Source: Ceraceosorus guamensis (Eukaryota; Basidiomycota; Exobasidiomycetes; Ceraceosorales; Ceraceosoraceae). Taken from it: a DNA stretch of 64,000 nt. The notes under the pieces are model-generated. The model ran no database searches and had not been told where the DNA came from. It saw only the letters and a list, made by a program, of their open reading frames with translations. The DNA lies in NCBI RefSeq assembly GCF_003144195.1, contig NW_020290010.1, positions 124,001 through 188,000 on the forward strand. Reading direction: 5' to 3'. This document shows, piece after piece, positions 14,609 through 48,835 of this stretch; the first letter of the stretch is position 1, and each line of letters starts with the position of its first letter. Position numbers and translations under genes: made by a program.

Positions 14609-16167
14609 ATGCGTTCTCAATTTGTTGCCCTTGGCGCCATGGTCTCGGCCGCCATGACTTTGGCTGTGCCAACGACCCGCGAGGTTGCCGCCGAAAAGCG
14701 TCAGCTCTCTATTCCTGACTCTTTGATTCCTGGAATCAACGACAACATCACTTCGATTCTGCAAAACATTCTGGGACCACTTCCCATCCTCCAGGCGCCC
14801 ACCCCTGCCCTGAGCTCGCCGCCATTCAAGCAGCTGAGCATCAAGCCAAAGAAGGTCGGCTACTATTGGACTGGTGCTGAGGACAGGAAGCACAAAGACT
14901 TCCTCGCTGTCGTGTCTCACGACGATGACACTTTCGGTCAATTCGTCAACATTGCCGAGGTTCCCACCTCTGGTAACGAGCCTCACCACATCGGTGCGAG
15001 TGCCGACGGCAAGACCCTCGTCGGTGGTGGTCTGCTCTCTCTACTCAAGACTCAAGACACCGCCTTCTACTTTGACATCTCTGACCCATACGCACCCAAA
15101 TTCAAGAAGGTGAGAGTCGCTTCGATTCGATGCTCCTGATGGTGACCAAGGGCGGCTGTGCTAGGAGTTTGAGCTGACAGAATGCCCTTTCACTCTCGCT
15201 TATCCTTCAGAGCAACAGAGCTTTGCTGGCATCAATCACCGATGAGATCCGTGCCAAGCCCGACGGTGGTTTCTTCATCACCTACATGGGCTCCGCTGCC
15301 GGTACCTCCCCAGGTCGTCTCGTCGAGACCAACGCCGACTTTGACATCATCGGTCAATGGCCTCAATCTCTTGACTCCATCAACGCTCTTACTCAGCAGT
15401 TCAGCCCTCATGGTCTGTCCATCGACTGGAAGAACAACTGGATCCTGACTTCCGACTACGTCGTTCCCCTCTCCGTCCTCAAGCCTTCCACTGGTATTCA
15501 GCGTGCCAACACCCTTCGTCTCTGGACCCTCCACAACCGTGAGATCGTCAACACCATCACGATCCCCCGCGGAGGTGGAATTCAGGACGTCAAGTTCATC
15601 CCCAACAACCCCGATGGTGCAGCTATTGCCACTGCTGTCCACCTCGGTCAGATCTGGATCATCTACCCCAACCGTAAGGATGCCAACGGCAAGCAGGGCA
15701 CCGCCGAGCTGCTCTTCGACCTCGGCCCCCGCGCTCGTGACAGCACTGCCATCTACACTGCTGTTTCCAACGACGGCAAGTTCCTGTACGGCTCCATCAC
15801 CACCGGCAACCACGTCTTTGCCTTGGACATCAGCGACTTGAAGAACATTAAGCGTCTGGACAACCCCGACGAGCAACAGAAGTCAGCTGGTGGCGTTCCC
15901 GTTCTCGGACCTCACTTCTTGTCTCTGTCCCCAGACCAAAAGACGCTGACCGTCACCGACTACTTTGTCCGCACCGGCGACATTGGTATCCTCAACACAC
16001 CAGGAAACTACTTTTCTCACGTCATCGACATTCTCCCCAACGGTGGATTGAGCTTCAACCGTACCATCGACTTTGCTGGCCGTTTCCCTGACCGCGGTGG
16101 TGCTCGTCCTCACTCCAGCACCGTCTTTGACTTCACCGACCCAGAGAACCCCAAGTGGTCTTACTAA
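14609..16167 (+). CDS. Secreted SBP56 / methanethiol-oxidase-like beta-propeller protein
   Basis: Two exons are inferred: 14609-15109 and 15211-16167, giving about 485 residues. A signal peptide (MRSQFVALGAMVSAAMTLA) is followed by a Lys-Arg Kex2 site (AAEKRQL), suggesting a cleaved propeptide. The body has the repeated strand pattern of the selenium-binding protein family: EPHHIGASADGKTLVGGG, QFSPHGLSIDWKNNWIL, GGGIQDVKFIPNNPDGAA, HVFALDISDLKNIKRL and LGPHFLSLSPDQKTLTVTDY match the usual blade positions in order. Known SBP56 members are cytosolic or periplasmic and act on methanethiol or bind selenium and copper; whether this secreted form has that activity cannot be told. Codon use is strongly biased to C-ending codons, more than in neighbours, hinting at high expression. 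The 485-residue length is close to the family norm. Confidence 0.75.
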
Positions 16168-35956: not shown

Positions 35957-37199
35957 TTACTCGAGCTGTTGGCGACGAGCAGCGAGCTGAGTCGATTCGC
36001 CCGCATCTTCGCCCTTGTCTACATTCGCACCATCATTAGTGACCGTCTCGGAGTGATTGGTTGTCTGGTCGTGGTTGCTGACGTGAACTGTGTCCTTGAT
36101 GTTGGATTTGACTTTCTTCTTGGGCGTCGTCGTGTCGGCGGCGTTTGTAGAGGGAGGAGGTGGAGGAGGTGTAGAGGGAGGAGGCGCGCTCGCGCCGGTA
36201 GGTCCAGTTCTGTGATCCTCTGCAGGCTCGACGCGGTCCGGTCCATCGATCTGCACCACCTTGCCTTCGTGCACCGTGCCATCAGCATCGATCACTGGGC
36301 CTTTGACCAATGTGCCTCTTCGCTGAGCAGCTTCGTGTTGAACATGGTCCTCGGCACCCACCACTTCATCGTGGTCCAGACCATTCTCTCCCACTTGGCC
36401 TGCCTCGATCGAACCGTCGGCGTGCACTTTGGGTCCGACTACGCTGGTGCCGCGGCGATACTGACCAGGTACGGGCGCGCCAGCAGCAGCATTCTCTTGC
36501 ATCTCGTTTTTGCTATCAATCACGTCGTCGTGGTCGAGACCGTTCTCTTCGATCTTGCCATCTTCAATGGATCCGTCGGCGTGGACCTTGGGTCCGACCA
36601 CGCTGGTGCCGCGGCGGTAATGGGTGCTTACAGGCGAGCCAGCAGCCGCACTCTGTTCGTTTTTGCTGCCAATGACGTTGTCGTGATCGAGACCATTGTC
36701 GACGATCTTGCCCTCTTCAACAGATCCATCCGCATTGACTTTGGCGCCGACGACGTCGATACCGCGGCCTTGCACGCTGTAGGAGCTTCTGCGCTCGTAC
36801 ATGATGTACGCTTGCTCCGCTACGCTGCGCGGACGATGAATTGATTCGCGAGTGCGGTCGCCGTGAAAGGGCATGTATTCACGAGCGTTGATGACCTGGC
36901 CTTGAGCGCCAGTCAAGTCGTTGGAAGCGCCGACAATGGCAGTCTTGTCGGACTTGGTGATGGTGCCATCGTGAGTCTTGCCTTGTGCTGCGAGCGAAAC
37001 GACATGCAGATCGTCAGCATCGCCTGTATCACATCCACCCGTTACTCATGCAGAACTCACCATCCACCGTAGGACCGGAAACGAGAACGTTGTTGTTGGA
37101 TGCATTGTCGGATGCACGTCGACCGTAACCAGGAATGGGCGCTGCGACAGCGTTGGTGGCAATGAGAACCACGGTGAGGAGAGGCAGAGTGAACTTCAT
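35957..37199 (-). CDS. Secreted tandem-repeat precursor with Kex2 sites
   Basis: Two exons are inferred, 37199-37061 and about 36987-35957, giving about 389 residues. A signal peptide (MKFTLPLLTVVLIATNAVA) leads. The body consists of imperfect repeats, each with a core like VVGPKVHADGSIEDGKIEEN followed by GLDHDDVID, separated by Arg-Arg sites at residues 27-28, 112-113, 171-172, 224-225, 269-270 and near the C-terminus. Units 2 and 3 are 53 and 45 residues long; the first and last are degenerate. A Pro-rich stretch and a Lys-rich stretch follow the repeats. This layout is that of fungal precursors cut by kexin into several peptides, such as the Ustilago repellent precursor Rep1 and the class called kexin-processed peptides. 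The repeats here are acidic and have no Cys. Whether the products are surface repellents, signals or effectors cannot be told. A TATA box lies 320 bases upstream. Confidence 0.85.
36230..36769 (-). repeat. Coding tandem repeats of the Kex2-precursor gene
   Basis: Four units of about 135-160 nt. The two central units share long near-identical blocks at the DNA level, for example around 36411-36457 and 36569-36616, suggesting recent duplication or gene conversion. Confidence 0.8.
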
Positions 37200-39700
37200 G
37201 ATGTGAATGGTCAGGTCGAGGGGGTCGTTGTCGGGAATGGATGCGGTGTACCGTCAAGGTAGCAGAATGGATAAGACAAGCGGACGGATGAGATGAGTAG
37301 GGACGAGAACGCAAGAGTCGTGAAAGCTGGATGCTATGTGAGCGTGGTGACGATGCTGTGCTGTAGTGAGAACGCTCCTGGCGTTTGAATGTACGAGAGT
37401 AGAGACTTGACTGCGGGAGCGGGGTCACTGCGATGCCGGATCGGACCAGAATGAAACGAGACAATGCGAGGCGGAAGGTGAAGAGGAGAGTTCCGGGATG
37501 CAGTCTACTTGGGTGCTCCTTATATATTTCGCAGCTTCCTTTCATGCTTCCCTCGGTCGATGACAGACCACTGCCTCGTCTCGCACTCTGCCATTGCTTG
37601 ATCTATGGCGGGTCCGGCGTTCCAGCGACAGAAAGCGTGAGAAAGTAAAGAGCGCATCGGCGCTGCTGTCATCGATGCACGAAGACGCCAATAGTGAATG
37701 CCGCATAAGCCTGTCCCAGAAATAGCTTAGTCAATCTTGTATGACTTTGCGTCTGTCCGCCATGATGTCACAGCTTGGTGGAATAGGGAGCAGTGTGAGT
37801 AATGGGCATTCATGATCGACCAGCAGGCGTTCTCAAGAATGTATGCATACGTGCTGCTGAGCCTTTCCAACAGCCCATAGCTTGCAGCTGCTGGGCGTCA
37901 GGCGCCAAGGACTTGTCGCGCAAGGGTGCCTGGCGTATATGCAGGTCCAGAACCTTGTACCTCGTAGCACCTCACTTGAAAAATTTTGCTCTCGCTGACG
38001 GCGAGGCGAGCATTACGAAGAAAGCAATTTGCGATTACAATCAGGTATGTGGGCATCATCAGAGAAGCATGAGCAGGGCTCGTCGGAAGTGCGCGCCTGT
38101 CCAAAGCGCGGATGTAAAATAGCACGCGTCGGTGTTTAACCATCGCGTCCTCTCATGCTGTTGGGCGCATTTCGGACGCGCTAAGGTGGCTGAATGCGCC
38201 AACTGCAGCAAGGCGCCGAATGACAGCACGCAACGCCCGGTCCACGCTTGGGTCACTCCAATCGATGTGGCATGCGAATCTTGAATCACTCGCTCTTTGG
38301 CGATTGAGCTCAACACTTACGACTCGACGATTCCTTTCATCCGCAGAGGCTCTGGATCGGGTGAGATCTCCGCAAGGGTCAGCCTAATCGAGATGTGCGA
38401 GACAGAACTAGAGTCAACGCTCCCACTCACACTCGAGTTCAAATTCTGCATGGCGCAAAGATGGGCCAACATCATTACATGCACAGTCGAATAGAGTTGG
38501 TAAAATCGTGTGTATAGAGGCTTCGTAAGGCTCGCATGCTGCGCCCGCAGTATACATGTAACCACCGAGGGGCCGAGCAAGGCGTAGCGACCGCTCTTCG
38601 GGGATATGTTCCAATCCCCATCCAGCAATTAGATGCGGGATTATGTGTGATAGCCGACTCTTGCATTTTCGGGTGCTCGCTCGCAAAAACGTGAGCGCGG
38701 TACGTTTCTTGATGGTCACGTATAGGTCTTGAGTGCAGGTCAAGGCGAGTCACGGGTCACGAGTGTGAGCGGACTACGCAAGTTGCAACCAAGCGTTCGT
38801 GACCGCTGTTGAGGACGGGCAGGCTGATGTCTGCTTCAGATAATATAACGTATACTGACTGCCAGGTGGACGTACTCTAGCCGTGGCATGCCCCAATCGC
38901 CCAAGCAGCAAGCACCCGCTCAGGGCCGCCTTGCTGACTATCGAATTGAAAGATATGCTGCACCACTGCATCGCAGCGAGCTTCGCAGAGCACAGTGAGT
39001 CGTAAGGAAGTCTCGACGAGATTACGCAACTTTTGCGACACGACTTGCTGACTAGGAGCATGCATGTAGACACGCTGTGCTTGACGCCCTAGACTCACGA
39101 CTGCAGCTCCGTCGCAAAGTCGCATCAATCGTGCTTTTGGCGCTCATGGAACGTGCGATCGTTGGCCAGCCCCAGAGCTGCTAGCGGCAGGCAAGCTGGC
39201 GTTCGCATCCTCATTGAAGCAAGCGACAGGTGTACAGACACAAATGTTGACTGAGTCTGGAGGGAAGTATTGCTGCGCAGTAAGGACAGCTTCATCGAGC
39301 GGAACAAAGACGCCTTCGTACAGGTCGCGAGAATCCCAGGCAATCAATGCAAGAGCATTGTTAAAGATGCCGTGGGCGGTGAGCCCATCTTGTCGCTTTC
39401 AGACTTCTCCCTTGAGAGACCTCGGGTAGCTGGTTCCTGCAGATAATGGGCGGGCGCCTAACCCGATTTGAAGGGTGGCGAGTGTACGTGATACAATCAC
39501 AATTCGCAGACGCGGCCTCGCTCAAGCTGGCAGAAAGACGAGATCGGGCAGCAGAGAAATCGAACTCACGACTACGCGATGCGACACGAGACGCGACCGG
39601 AACCGTGACGATGTGGAGCGTGAGGTCGCTCTCTTCGAACATCAGCGTGCGAACAAGCAACCTAGGAAGCATCAGATTACTTGATTGGACCAATGTGACC
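37200..39700. other. Long spacer, no gene recognised
   Basis: Promoter side of the repeat-precursor gene and 3' side of the YjbQ gene. Motif words such as CTTGAATCACTCG (38280-38292) and GAGTCACGGGTCACGAGT (38748-38765) occur. A short frame on the minus strand near 39144-39405 looks mildly coding but has no ATG. Confidence 0.4.
37519..37526 (-). promoter_or_regulatory. TATA box upstream of the Kex2-precursor gene
   Basis: TATATAAG on the minus strand, 320 bases from the ATG at 37199, implying a long 5' leader if it is used. Confidence 0.45.
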
Positions 39701-43446: not shown

Positions 43447-44082
43447 ATGTCTTCCCCCGCTTCTCAGGCTGCATCCACCTCTTCTCCGCCTTCCTCACCT
43501 CCGGGCGGCGGCGCAGATGTGGGCGACTCAATCAACCCAGAAATCATAGACATGGACATCTTCAGCCAACTGCTCGAGATGGACGACGATGAGGACGATA
43601 GGGAATTCTCTCGGGAAATCGTCTGGAATTACTTTGATCAGGCTGCGGCTACATTTGTCAAGATGGACAAGGCACTGTAAGTCGTCACGATGTAGCTGTT
43701 GTTCAGGTGCCAATGGACAAGCGAAGCGAAGCACGTTACTTCTCGACTCTGATGTGCTGAGACAGCTGACCACTCACCTCTCCTGCTTTGTCTCCCCCGT
43801 AGCGAGGAAAAGAGCCTGCTCGAGCTTTCCACCTTGGGTCACTTCTTGAAGGGATCATCTGCAGCAGTCGGCGTGTCGAAAGTACGCGACTCCTGCGAAA
43901 ACATGCAGCACTATGGCAAGCAAGTTGAGCCTGACGGTGCGACGGAGATTACGGAAGAAGTCGCTTTGGAGAAATTGACTGCTACTCTTAAGGAGGTCAA
44001 AGTGCAGTACAAGGAAGCAGAGGAGGCTTTGAGGGCATTTTACAAGGCCCACGAGGGTGACGATGGCGATGCAGATGAATGA
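43447..44082 (+). CDS. YPD1: Histidine phosphotransfer protein Ypd1
   Basis: Phosphorelay intermediate that carries phosphate from hybrid histidine kinases such as Sln1 to the response regulators Ssk1 and Skn7, acting in osmotic and oxidative stress control. Two exons are inferred, 43447-43676 and 43803-44082, giving 169 residues, the family size. A Ser/Pro/Gly-rich N-terminus is followed by helices (NPEIIDMDIFSQLLEMDDD, FDQAAATFVKMDKAL). The active site is His90 in LGHFLKGSSAAVG, with the conserved Lys and Gly-Ser-Ser after it. CENMQHYGK and a long amphipathic final helix complete the four-helix HPt bundle. The C-terminal tail is acidic. The ATG at 43447 was chosen because the upstream part of the frame starts only with TTG. 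All HPt residues look intact. Confidence 0.95.
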
Positions 44083-45120
44083 GCCTAGAAACTTAACAAA
44101 GGAGTCAACAAGGCTGCCGATCACGCTCAATTTGAGCCCAAGCCGACGGTGGCAAGTACGGCTTCAACGTTGAAAGTCGATGGGCGCACGCACGGCCTTC
44201 ATCAGTACCCGCGACAAAAAGTTCCACGAGCAAATCTACGTTTCGTCCTGCCATAAGCGCTGCGATTTAGCTCGTCGCATTTTTGAGTCAAAGCACGATA
44301 CTCTCTCATCCCCCCTTTCGCTGCCCCCTCCACGAGCTCGAGAGCTCACGATACTCTGCGCAATACGATCTGAGCCTTTCGCTCCTGACTAGCACGTCTG
44401 GGACGCACATGTATGAGAAGCTCTTCTGTAATGCGAGCTGGCCTCACTCGCACGCTTGGCTCTCAGCTGGAGTCCAAGCGGATTCGGACCCACGACCGCC
44501 TGCCTGCCAATGCACAAAATCCGTGCGCCCCGAAAGGCAGGCGAGGGCGAATCACTTCGATGCTAGTCACAGTGTCCTCGGTCAGCGCGCAGCGGCTCGA
44601 TGGTCTCGTGATTAAAAGTGTGCGACTGTTGGTGTAGCTCTGCGGGGCTTCCCGGCTCAGCGATCGCAATAAAGACTCGCGACTGCTGTGTATGTGAACT
44701 TGAGCACAGCTTGCGACGCTCACAGGTACGAGCTACAGCGGTGGGTGCATCGACGGCCCTTCTGGCTTGCGTTAGACGTGCTCAGCATTTACGATCGCAA
44801 TCAGAATCGACGAGTCGATTGTGCCTGCATCAGCAGCGGCGACGCGGTTGCTGTCATGCAGCACGTGCAGCGCCTCACCTCGGGCGTAAGTGCTCACTGT
44901 GCATGTATGCGTGCATTTCTTGGACACTTGTGACTCGAGCTCCGCTAAGCTGCACAGTCACGAGTCAAGATTCAGGTTTGAGAGTCACACAGTTAAGAGT
45001 TGAGTGTGCCGCCCCTTCCTGCTTACGTTGGTGATTACCTTACCAATTTCAACTTGCAACGACAGTCTCGACAGCTATCTGTCCTGCTCGAGGCCGCTGA
45101 AAAGGCCAATCTTAGCCGCT
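44083..45120. other. Spacer, no gene recognised
   Basis: Between YPD1 and the Zn2Cys6 gene, both on +. Contains AGTCACGAGTCAAGATTC (about 44958-44975) of the recurrent motif type and a degenerate tRNA-like box-B sequence on the minus strand near 44480-44492 that could not be folded into a tRNA. Confidence 0.4.
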
Positions 45121-48100
45121 ATGGCTTTTCGACCAGCACCGAATCCAATGCAGGGGTCAGCAGATCCATCCTCATCCTCTTCTGATCCTTCTGGCAGTGT
45201 CATCCGCGCTGATAATGCGCAAACCGGAGCATCTGGCTCCACTAAGCGACCCCATCGAACGTATGCCAGAAGATCGTGTTTATCGTGCAGACAAAAGAAG
45301 ACCAGGTGCGAGTTGCCGGATATTTACGTCGAGAGCAGCAAGGATAAGCCAGTGCCGGCTGCCAAGAGGTGTCACCGATGCAGCGTATTGCAGATCGAGT
45401 GCTTTGTGTGGGATGGCGATCGCAAGCGTGTCCGAAAACTACCAAGCAAGAACGACGGTGAGTCTTTAAAGATGGCAGGCTGGTAAGCAGGTCAAGCTCA
45501 ACGTGCGTGCTTGACGCCATCCTTCACCAGCCAAACGTGGGAGCGTGCAGGAAGATGCCGGCCCGGAGGATGATGAAGTTGCTTCGATTGCGTCGGATGG
45601 CGCCGTCGAAGAAGGGCAAAAAGATAGTAGAGAAGGCGAAGCTATTCAAAATCTCATGTGGCTGCCAGAACCGATTGCTCCAGCTGCAGAGGGCAAACAG
45701 GGCGGAAACGGTCATGCGACGAACGGCGCGGCTGCGCTTGCACCAGGCCCGTCCGACTCGGCTTCTGAGAAGGAGCAACGCGGAGCAGCCCAGGGCACCT
45801 CGGCCAGCACTGTATCAGTGGCGAAGCGCCGACGACGCAAGCCGCACGAGCAGGTAGTGATCAACAGCAGCTTCCATCCATATCTTCTCTTTAGCGAAGT
45901 CTTGAACTCCTACCCAGGCTTTGGGCGCGACATGGGCTCTGGCTTGGCTAGGCCTGCGGATCGGAGAGTCAGGATTCCTCTCGACCCTGCGGACATTGTC
46001 GACGAAGGTCTCAGTCAGCAATTGGAGGAGCAGTGAGTGCGGAGGTCAGTCTAGATTTGACACTCATCACGTACGCTGAGGCATAAGCGGGCCGCCCTCT
46101 CAGCCTGATGGGCCACCGACTCATGTACCCGCATATACCTACGCTGTCTTTCGTGCGCGCTGCGCATCTCGACGATCCCGTGCAAGCCACAGCGCTGCTA
46201 TTAGCCGTGCTATACATTCTTGCGCTGAGGGCTTCAGATTCACCCTCCGCGCCTCGCTCGGATCCCGAGGCGACAAAGCAGCGTCTGTGCGCTTTGGAAG
46301 CGTCGGTACACGCGCACGGCATAGCTGTGCTTTTGAGCAGGCCTTTTTGCCGACACGCGGTCCTCGCACTCGAGCTAATCTCGCAGTATATGCCATTTGT
46401 GCTACTGCCAGCCTCCAGCATGAGTCCTGGCGCATGCGCACCTGAGGGTGGTATTGGCCTTGCGACGCTCGGGGCGACTGCTCGACGCATCGCGGAGTGT
46501 ATCGAGCTCGACAAGGCACCTCAACGCCTGCACATGATGTGTCGACGCATTTATCAACGACGAGAAACGCCAAATCCACGCTTGTTGGCGCCATTGCTGT
46601 GGGACGCTTGCCAATGGTACTCGCTCATTGCGGCTGAGAACGAGCGGGATATCGGCCACGATCCGTGGTCCCCCACCGCTACAAGCGAGGTCGACGACGC
46701 GATGATGGTTCTACTGGGTGGGGATCCCGATTTGGGGACGCCAATACTGGCGACGATGCCGTTCAACGTGCCGGACACAGTGCAAGTGCACGCCGACGGA
46801 TTGTCGCGACAAGCCTGCGCGTCCAACGACGCAGAAGAGATTGCAGCGGCTGCGGAGACGTTCATTCTCAAATTTCCATTCATACCGCCTCTGCTTGGCC
46901 GGTACTCTTTGGCACTCAGATACAAGTGGATGCTCATCCGTCGCGATCGTTGTCGGATCATCATGAAGCCAAAACAAAGTCAGCAGTACCACTATTCTTC
47001 CCTTGAGGAGCACGAGAAAGAAACAGAGATCGCCAAGGACGAAGCCGCACTCGCGAAAGGTGAGTTTTGTCGAGCTCTTCACCTCCTGTATATGCTGATG
47101 CATCGTCTGCATCTGTCGCCCTCGGCTAGCGCGATTGTTGACCTGGTTGCCTGACAATCTGAACACGAACGAGACACACAACACCCTTGCTTTTATGATC
47201 GAAATGCTCAACTTCTACGTTGGAGTGCACGACTCGAATTTGCACAACCTTAGCATGTGGTTCGCCATCTTTGCCGCAAAGGCAGAACTTGAGGCTGAGG
47301 ACCCGTTCATTGGGAAGGACAGATCGTCTCAAGCCAAATCATGCGACGAGGCGACTGGCGGCGAAAAGGAATCTCCAGACGGCGCCACTTCGACGAGCAC
47401 GACGCCCTCCTCGGATGCTCTCGCAGCTAGGCGTCTCAGTAACCGGCCAGTCTCCCAAAAGAAGGGCGAGGACATTATGAGTCTCATCATCGCCGGCATT
47501 TGTAGTCAAGGCCCCATCGGAGAGCTACTGCATCGATTTGGCTTTACCAAAATTGACCGATTCGAAGAAGCCTTGGGCTCCTTTGTGCAGCTCGCTTCGT
47601 CGACGTGTCGCTCGGCTCGTGCCATGCCTCCGGTATTTCTTGTGGCCAACGTCGTCTTCGTCTGCAAGTCCTACACAGAAGATGCAGCTGCACGGCTCAA
47701 GGGGTGGGGCGGAATGCACAAGCGAGCTACCACGCACTTTGTCCTCTTCTCTGAAGTCGCACGCAGACTCGAATCCGTCTGGGCGGTCAATTGCGGCCAG
47801 GCGAACACGGCTCGCGAGGCCAACTTGGGCGCAGCAGGGGCTCATCTCGTGCGCGGTCTCGTTGGAATCATGGAGACTTGGAAGCGCATCGCAGAGAGGC
47901 GTGGGGCACCGCCGACCGGCGAGTACAATCCGAGGTGGTCGACTCAAGCAGGAGTCTTTTCTCGGCCAGGCGAGGCGGCAACGAGCACAGATAACAGTCC
48001 GAGCGTAACGACGCGATCCGACCTATTCGAGCCAGGCGCAACACCCGAATCACTGCTAGCTTTGTCATCTCGGCCAACTACCGCCACTTTGTCTGCTCCG

Positions 48101-48835
48101 TCTTCCACTGCCCCGTCGTATCCTAGTCGCGGTGATCTGTTAGAAGGGCAGTCCACTGCTCTTCAGAACTGGGCGGCGCCGGTCTTGAGCCGGCCCGAGT
48201 CTCAGGGCGAGCTGCTACAGCCAATTCAGGCCGTGGCCGCCGCTGACACCTGGGCTGGCGCTTCCTCGGGCCTCTACACCGCACCGGAGAGAGGAGCCTC
48301 GCCGCCGAGTTCGAGCTTGGGCGTAGGACATCACACCAAACACGGCACGGGTGGTCCTGCAGGCATTGAGCTCCGTCCGGGCGACCTGAGCTTTGCAGAT
48401 CTCTTTCCTGAGTATGCGTCAGCTGCTACCACACCGTTTCCGATCAGCCGAGCGGAGGAAACGAGTGGTCTGTCTCACGCGACTCAGAACCCCCAGGCCT
48501 GGAACGTGTCGACCAACTTTGCTGCGTCCGACAGCGCTTCAGGCGATGCGTTCTGGCCAGCTTCTGCGAACACTGCCGGCGCCCACTTGGCTTCGCAGCA
48601 AAACAGCGGCAACGATGCACTTGACGCTATTCTACAATCACTGGAAGGACCTTCGGACGCTTTTGTGCCTTTTGTGCCTCTGGAGGGTTGGCTGGACCTT
48701 GCTGATCTGGACACCAGTCCCTTTGGAAGTGGCAGCAACTCTTCGCGGCCCTCGGCCGAGGAGACTACCGCGCAGCCTCACCAAAGTCAATCCGGCGCTG
48801 ACGGCTGGGCCAGCTTGATGGCTAGTTTGCGCTAA
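45121..48835 (+). CDS. Zn2Cys6 (binuclear zinc cluster) transcription factor
   Basis: Fungal DNA-binding regulator, nuclear; target unknown. Four exons are inferred: 45121-45457, 45531-46032, 46104-47059 and 47130-48835, giving about 1166 residues. The cluster has Cys53, Cys56, Cys63, Cys84, Cys87 and Cys94 (C-X2-C-X6-C-X20-C-X2-C-X6-C); the middle loop of 20 is longer than the usual 5-12. Basic residues flank it (RRRRKPHEQ is further on). The middle, from FHPYLLFSEVLNSYP through MGHRLMYPHIPTLSF and RYSLALRYKWMLIRRDRC, looks like the regulatory middle-homology region of this class. The last 500 residues are Ser/Ala/Gly/Pro-rich with acidic-hydrophobic motifs near the end (FVPLEGWLDLADLD), which could be an activation domain. 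It lies next to the two acetate-type transporter genes; a regulatory link is possible but only guessed from position. Confidence 0.9.

What the first reader, a model, noticed from the sequence alone, without database searches (positions are those of the whole stretch)
35957..37199. Secreted repeat precursor likely cut by kexin into several peptides
A signal peptide followed by at least four related units of about 45-53 residues, each bounded by Arg-Arg. The core word GPKVHADGSIEDGKI and the DHD element repeat, and a degenerate copy lies right after the signal peptide. Known precedents are Ustilago Rep1 and the class of kexin-processed fungal peptides. The acidic, Cys-free units here do not match any I know. 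This is the best candidate in the window for an undescribed peptide system.
Basis: partly seen in the sequence, partly recalled or inferred. Interest (0 to 1): 0.8.

Follow-up and report, generated by a model that had tools for sequence, protein, structure and literature searches.

The report
Secreted precursor of repeated fungal peptides
A leaf-dwelling fungus carries a gene for a protein built of related blocks joined by likely cutting sites, so it probably releases several small acidic peptides outside the cell; this way of making peptides is known in fungi, but relatives of these peptides were found only in one sister species and their job is unknown.

Summary
The gene lies on the minus strand (ATG 37199, stop at 35957, one 73-nt intron) and equals the public 389-residue protein IE81DRAFT_53192 of Ceraceosorus guamensis. 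It has a signal-peptide-like start, no cysteine, six Arg-Arg sites and five related units. Only three units (59, 53, 45 residues) lie between two Arg-Arg sites; the first sits in an 85-residue piece and the last heads a 115-residue piece. The units are homologous. Their core is under purifying selection (dN/dS about 0.15 at dS about 1 for two of three pairs), and Arg-Arg persists with changing codons. C. bombacis keeps five units and six sites. The genome encodes a kexin.

[quoted passage not shown] No relative outside the genus was found, no Pfam family and no convincing PDB fold match for one unit. The databank label 'Hypervirulence associated' is not supported. Most likely it yields a small set of distinct acidic linear peptides acting at the cell or leaf surface; cutting and role are inferred. 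New member of a known kind.

The parts
37061..37199 (-). Exon 1: start codon, signal-peptide-like stretch (MKFTLPLLTVVLIATNAVA, AxA-type cut site), short pro-stretch APIPGYG-RR and the start of unit U0
   Evidence: product identical to P0001. Signal peptide judged by eye; no SignalP available.
36988..37060 (-). Intron, 73 nt, GTGAGT...CTGAC branch-point-like...CAG; interrupts unit U0
   Evidence: the deposited protein implies the same junction.
35957..36987 (-). Exon 2: rest of U0, U1-U4, Pro-rich stretch, C-tail, stop
36788..37115 (-). Fragment with degenerate unit U0 (residues 29-113, 85 aa), interrupted by the intron
   Evidence: Core VSGPTVDAQGKTHDGTI; alignment to the other four units, at most 1 of 300 shuffles as good.
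36611..36787 (-). Unit U1 (residues 114-172, 59 aa), Arg-Arg on both sides, pI 4.7 without the arginines
36452..36610 (-). Unit U2 (residues 173-225, 53 aa), Arg-Arg on both sides, pI 4.2 without the arginines
36317..36451 (-). Unit U3 (residues 226-270, 45 aa), Arg-Arg on both sides, pI 4.4 without the arginines
36227..36316 (-). Unit U4 (residues 271-300), Arg-Arg on the N side only
36122..36226 (-). Pro-rich stretch (residues 301-335); inside the 48-residue segment absent from the C. bombacis gene model
35972..36121 (-). C-tail (residues 336-385), ends in the sixth Arg-Arg
37521..37526 (-). TATA-box-like site (TATATA), 327 nt upstream of the start codon; the leader behind it has no ATG and is pyrimidine-rich

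Best explanation
The gene encodes a pre-pro-protein of the Kex2-processed repeat protein (KEP) type. The protein enters the secretory pathway by its signal peptide. Kexin cuts after the Arg-Arg pairs, and a Kex1-type carboxypeptidase trims the two arginines. This frees three linear, Cys-free, acidic peptides of about 57, 51 and 43 residues, plus an 83-residue N-terminal and a 113-residue C-terminal product that each carry one diverged copy of the same core. Each peptide has a short core (VVGPKVHADGSIEDGKI type) that may form a small beta-strand element, followed by a flexible acidic tail. Outside the cell they most likely coat the cell surface or matrix of this leaf-surface fungus rather than act as a pheromone or a modified toxin. 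Shown by computation: gene model, repeats, Arg-Arg sites, purifying selection between units, conservation in C. bombacis, a kexin gene. Inferred: secretion, cutting, trimming (no Kex1 gene was sought), surface role (about 0.35 by itself).
For: The gene model is identical to a deposited protein. Five homologous units occur in each of two species. RR is enriched 6 to 0.97, 0 of 20000 shuffles. RR is kept with five different codon pairs at six sites, and no two of the six four-residue stretches before it are the same. Between-unit NG86 dN/dS is 0.160/1.029 (U1-U2) and 0.163/1.089 (U2-U3) over 34 codons. All six RR and all five units are kept in C. bombacis. The genome has one P-domain match, whose frame matches kexin 2id4 at E 2e-124. 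Published KEP definitions are met as far as applied (read). Yeast-like Basidiomycota are noted for longer KEP peptides (PMC6339444 section 6). A TATA-like site and a pyrimidine-rich leader suggest a real promoter. No UstYa domain in the 16 window ORFs scanned.
Against: No direct evidence of expression, secretion or cutting. Only three units are bounded by RR on both sides, the minimum used in the surveys. With the two species at 92% identity, conservation of RR is weak evidence. Dibasics of any kind are only mildly enriched (8 against 3.8, p 0.025). The five fragments range from 45 to 115 aa, unlike precursors that release near-identical copies. The repeated RR sites partly descend from one another, so the shuffle test overstates independence. 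The surface role has no direct support: the three bounded units are hydrophilic (GRAVY -0.46 to -0.72), unlike the amphipathic Rep1 peptides, and knockouts of six KEPs in Coprinopsis cinerea had no apparent phenotype (PMC9769878 passage).
Confidence: 0.72

Rival explanations
1. A secreted repeat protein that works uncut: the units are domains or spacers of one cell-wall or matrix protein, and the Arg-Arg pairs are cut only at the N-terminal pro-site or not at all.
For: U. maydis has both kinds: of fifteen repeat-containing effectors, seven are not predicted to be cut by Kex2 (PMC5923269 passage). The long Pro-rich and C-terminal part looks like a linker and tail. The U2 model has four short strands in its core; the full-length model draws a similar pattern in the units but at useless confidence.
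Against: RR is the only kind of dibasic pair up to residue 335, and the pairs fall at the unit borders. Its codons change while the pair stays.
Confidence: 0.2
2. A precursor of modified cyclic peptides (ustiloxin/dikaritin-type RiPP).
For: Signal peptide plus repeats between Kex2 sites is the ustiloxin-type precursor architecture (PMC7329392 abstract). Tyr stands directly before RR in U1 and U2.
Against: Units are 45-59 aa with divergent tails and no short identical core. No UstYa (DUF3328) match in the genome (but no control genome rang, so absence is not shown) nor in the 16 window ORFs scanned. Only 103 of 1680 Basidiomycota KEPs have a DUF3328 neighbour (PMC7329392 passage).
Confidence: 0.04
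3. A virulence effector precursor: the peptides are released as in the best explanation, but act on the plant host.
For: The relative C. bombacis is a leaf pathogen of Bombax (PMC11687029 passages). A Hum3/Rsp1 double knockout of U. maydis, both repeat proteins with putative Kex2 sites, stalls soon after penetration (PMC4617103 table). Four of five U. maydis KEPs change expression during infection (PMC6339444 passage).
Against: C. guamensis is known only as a yeast-like epiphyte from a healthy leaf and keeps the gene intact; its pathogenic ability is unknown. The units were not recently amplified or homogenised. Rep1 is not required for virulence of U. maydis.
Confidence: 0.2
4. A protein of the hypervirulence-associated TUDOR (Hva1) family, as the UniRef label (seen cut short) suggests.
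For: UniRef name 'Hypervirulence associated ...'.
Against: No PF11160 match in the protein at E up to 10 (HMMER's filters drop most matches above about 0.1) nor in P0002 or U2 at E up to 1. The genome's two PF11160 matches lie on other contigs, C9 and C74.
Confidence: 0.02

Closest known systems
Kex2-processed repeat proteins (KEPs; PMC6339444, PMC7329392)
   Same: Signal-peptide-like start; three similar fragments of 8-100 aa between dibasic sites; repeats fill well over 15% of the protein; kexin in the genome.
   Different: Repeats at the long end and few in number, diverged from one another (57-69% identical in local alignments); two further diverged copies sit inside long terminal fragments.
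Ustilago maydis Rep1 (repellents)
   Same: Rep1 also gives peptides of 35-53 aa plus one much longer product of 228 aa (PMC4617103 table); both species are Ustilaginomycotina.
   Different: Rep1 has twelve amphipathic repeats, and its peptides form amyloid-like fibrils; here the bounded units are acidic and hydrophilic, and no sequence relation was found. The Rep1 sequence itself was not on hand to compare.
Ustilago maydis Rsp1 and Hum3
   Same: Repeats between putative Kex2 sites; Rsp1 repeats are described as hydrophilic (PMC4617103 table).
   Different: Rsp1: eleven repeats of 18 or 21 aa. Hum3: seventeen amphipathic repeats followed by a hydrophobin domain. Neither layout is seen here.
Ustiloxin-type RiPP precursors
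   Same: Signal-peptide-like start and repeats between Kex2-type sites.
   Different: No short identical core peptide, no UstYa domain in the ORFs scanned.

Membership tests
Kex2-processed repeat proteins (KEPs) | Signal peptide (SignalP in the surveys) | tested here: inconclusive
   Hydrophobic N-terminus with AVA-AP cut site by eye; SignalP was not available.
Kex2-processed repeat proteins (KEPs) | At least three similar fragments between KR/RR/KK/RK sites, of 8-100 aa (PMC7329392 section 13; PMC6339444 section 24) | tested here: met
   U1, U2, U3 of 59, 53, 45 aa; identities 35/51 (U1-U2), 28/42 (U2-U3), 20/35 (U1-U3). The papers' own scripts and scores were not run; if U4's whole 115-aa fragment were counted it would exceed 100 aa.
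Kex2-processed repeat proteins (KEPs) | Repeats occupy at least 15% of the protein | tested here: met
   Smallest repeat times three, 3 x 45 of 389 residues, is 35% (lengths; rule).
Kex2-processed repeat proteins (KEPs) | Kexin present in the organism | tested here: met
   One P-domain match in the genome; its frame matches kexin 2id4 at E 2e-124.
Kex2-processed repeat proteins (KEPs) | Peptides actually released by Kex2 | not testable with these tools
   Needs peptidomics.
Repellents (Rep1) | Sequence homology to Rep1 | tested here: inconclusive
   No protein outside Ceraceosorus at E up to 10 among 2907 candidates, but the search needs shared 5-residue words; Rep1 itself was not on hand.
Repellents (Rep1) | Amphipathic repeats that form surface-active fibrils | tested here: inconclusive
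   Bounded units hydrophilic, GRAVY -0.46 to -0.72; fibril formation not testable.
Ustiloxin-type RiPP precursors | UstYa/DUF3328 gene near the precursor gene | tested here: inconclusive
   None in 16 window ORFs scanned, which are not all genes of the window; none in the genome, but no control rang.
Hva1 TUDOR family | Match to PF11160 | tested here: not met
   No match at E up to 10; the genome's two matches lie elsewhere.

The most novel reading that the evidence does not exclude
One gene delivers a fixed set of distinct, individually conserved acidic peptides, not many copies of one peptide. The units were already different before the two species split (U2 to its counterpart 50/53 identical, U2 to U3 28/42) and were not homogenised since. 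Such a set could be a lineage-specific surface material of Ceraceosorus: an acidic, hydrophilic counterpart of the smut repellents in which a beta-prone core assembles and the acidic tail stays outward.
Probability: 0.2. Interest if true: 0.6.

Novelty: new member of a known kind. Interest (0 to 1): 0.36.

Why it matters
KEPs are widespread in fungi (7878 found in 1345 of 1461 strains, 2560 of them without homologues; PMC7329392 abstract) and their functions are largely unknown (PMC9769878 abstract). This one has a clear layout in a little-studied order, occurs once in the genome at the sensitivity used, and is kept in both a leaf epiphyte and a leaf pathogen. It is therefore a clean case for testing what long acidic KEP peptides do without infection as the only explanation.

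Tried and rejected
Deeper relatives. The whole protein gave 2 proteins (itself and CBOM_06967) at E <= 0.001 among 7996 scored candidates; only those sharing most words were scored. Residues 114-290 gave the same 2 at E <= 10 among 2907. A 120-residue piece from the start of U2 into U4 gave 0 of 73 at E <= 10. Further copies in the genome: one search gave 2 matches, both in this gene. One search gave 4 matches: 2 pieces of this gene and 2 weak ones (E 0.03 and 0.77) to residues 303-344 and 282-330, not examined further. I found no DNA of C. bombacis to use, so no dN/dS between species was made.

The 37-nt intron alternative was rejected: it breaks the U0 repeat and disagrees with the deposited protein. 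The ATG-free leader is not remarkable by shuffling (292 of 2000 dinucleotide shuffles of the leader are also ATG-free). Its pyrimidine content of 0.66 is rarer: 4 of 2160 sampled stretches reach it, 30 of 2160 are ATG-free and 0 of 2160 are both.

Literature. Seven searches. No paper in the library holds the names IE81DRAFT_53192 or CBOM_06967. The supplementary tables of the KEP surveys could not be read (no look-ups allowed), so either protein may be listed there.

Full report
What is there. The window belongs to Ceraceosorus guamensis (Ustilaginomycotina, Exobasidiomycetes, Ceraceosorales), judged by identity of this protein. The gene is on the minus strand: exon 1 37061-37199, intron 36988-37060, exon 2 35957-36987. 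Its 389-aa product is identical to IE81DRAFT_53192. The intron choice matters: the 73-nt intron has a CTGAC branch-point-like site and restores the core of the first repeat (VSGPTVDAQGKTHDGTI), while the 37-nt alternative breaks it.

Anatomy. There is a signal-peptide-like stretch, a short pro-stretch ending in RR at residues 27-28, then five units sharing the core [VI].G[AP].[VI].[AT].G....G.[IV] (in C. bombacis the last position of U4 is K, at the edge of a gap in its gene model). RR starts at residues 27, 112, 171, 224, 269 and 384; the only other dibasics are in a KKK run at 336-338. Cutting at RR gives, after the pro-stretch, fragments of 85, 59, 53, 45 and 115 residues and a last four; the middle three are the bounded repeats. 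Their pI after trimming is 4.7, 4.2 and 4.4 and GRAVY -0.46, -0.72 and -0.52; the protein has no Cys. The first fragment is only mildly acidic (pI 5.9, charge about -2), so 'acidic' fits the middle units best.

More than chance. All 10 unit pairs of C. guamensis score above at least 299 of 300 shuffles. Among the 10 pairs of C. bombacis the weakest are reached by 8 of 300 (V1-V4) and 3 of 300 (V0-V3), the other 8 by none. RR: 6 found, 0.97 expected, 0 of 20000 shuffles reach 6. KR plus RR: 187 of 20000 reach 6; any dibasic: 8 against 3.8, p 0.025. The repeated RR sites descend partly from one another, so the shuffles overstate independence. The better argument is that RR is kept with five different codon pairs at six sites, while no two of the four-residue stretches before it are the same; two of the six sites (171 and 224) do share codons and the residues that follow.

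Selection. Over 34 core codons, NG86 dN and dS are 0.160 and 1.029 for U1-U2 and 0.163 and 1.089 for U2-U3; U1-U3 has saturated dS and gave no ratio. Over 22 codons, U4 against U1, U2 and U3 gives 0.50/1.71, 0.51/2.38 and 0.53/2.83, near saturation. The peptide, not the DNA, is what is kept. Units of the two species match their counterparts (77/85, 54/58, 50/53, 38/45 for U0-U3) better than their neighbours in the same protein (U2-U3 28/42), so the units were distinct before the species split and were not homogenised since; U4 against its counterpart is only 22/37 because of the gap in the C. bombacis model. The first 28 residues are identical in the two species.

Relatives and surroundings. 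The only relative found is CBOM_06967 of C. bombacis: 80% identical over the query, 92% over aligned columns, with all six RR and all five units. Its gene model lacks 48 residues of the Pro-rich part. In C. guamensis that segment (about 36116-36259) is open, a multiple of three and bounded by GT and AG, but holds no CTRAY branch-point-like site, so an annotation artefact is at least as likely as an optional intron. No other protein was found; distant relatives sharing no five-residue words would be missed. Six-frame search of the genome found no second copy of the units. Of 16 window ORFs scanned with Pfam (6, 10; not every gene of the window), matches over the cut-off were ALG6/ALG8, Hpt domain, ClpB-type AAA, ERG4/ERG24, DNA polymerase B (two ORFs) and TFIIB; SBP56 (two ORFs) and Zn_clus were under it; six ORFs had none. 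This does not look like a biosynthetic cluster.

Processing machinery. The genome has one match to the P-domain of proprotein convertases, and that frame matches kexin and furin structures (kexin 2id4, E 2e-124). The next frame carries a membrane-span-like stretch with an acidic tail, read by eye. Kex1 was not sought.

What it works like. Known KEPs give linear peptides (alpha-pheromone, candidalysin, Rep1) or modified cyclic ones (passages of PMC9769878; abstract of PMC7329392). Unit length, lack of UstYa among the ORFs scanned and lack of XA or XP right after the cut sites speak for plain linear peptides and against a pheromone. Rep1 is nearest in layout and taxon: ten peptides of 35-53 aa plus one of 228 aa (PMC4617103 table). 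It differs in being amphipathic. A surface or matrix role is my best guess (about 0.35), an effector role about 0.2, the rest open. Against any easy reading, knockouts of six KEPs in Coprinopsis cinerea showed no apparent phenotype (PMC9769878 passage). C. guamensis is known only from a healthy leaf as a yeast-like form and C. bombacis as a leaf pathogen (PMC11687029 passages), so the gene is not confined to a known pathogen.

Verdict. Observation confirmed with corrections. Interpretation supported as a class assignment. Novelty: apparently a new family within KEPs, found in one genus; proteins without homologues are common in that class. Papers seen: abstracts and outlines of PMC6339444 and PMC7329392, sections 24 and 6 of the first and section 13 of the second, plus passages of both; passages only of PMC4617103, PMC9769878 (and the start of its abstract), PMC5923269 and PMC11687029; the rest only as search listings.

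Noticed in passing
14609-16167 (+): Two ORFs with weak matches to SBP56 (selenium-binding protein; 17.7 and 18.5 bits against a cut-off of 34). The first starts like a secreted protein with a KR site soon after (by eye), so it may be a secreted relative of this family.
   Followed up: partly
37200-37526 (-): TATA-like site followed by a 295-nt leader with no ATG and 66% pyrimidines (4 of 2160 sampled stretches of the window are as pyrimidine-rich). From general knowledge such leaders go with strong fungal promoters.
   Followed up: partly
36116-36259 (-): The C. bombacis gene model drops 48 residues here; in C. guamensis the stretch is open, a multiple of three and bounded by GT and AG, without a CTRAY-like branch point: an optional intron or an annotation artefact.
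   Followed up: partly
43753-44082 (+): Hpt-domain (phosphotransfer) frame, 27.4 bits against a cut-off of 24.6.
   Followed up: no
45004-48835 (+): Possible Zn2Cys6 transcription factor spread over several frames (Zn_clus 18.8 bits in 45004-45486, under the cut-off of 21; the frames 46087-47154 and 47195-48835 had no Pfam match).
   Followed up: no
P0001 record name: UniRef calls the protein 'Hypervirulence associated ...' although no PF11160 match was found; the name looks like an automatic mislabel.
   Followed up: yes
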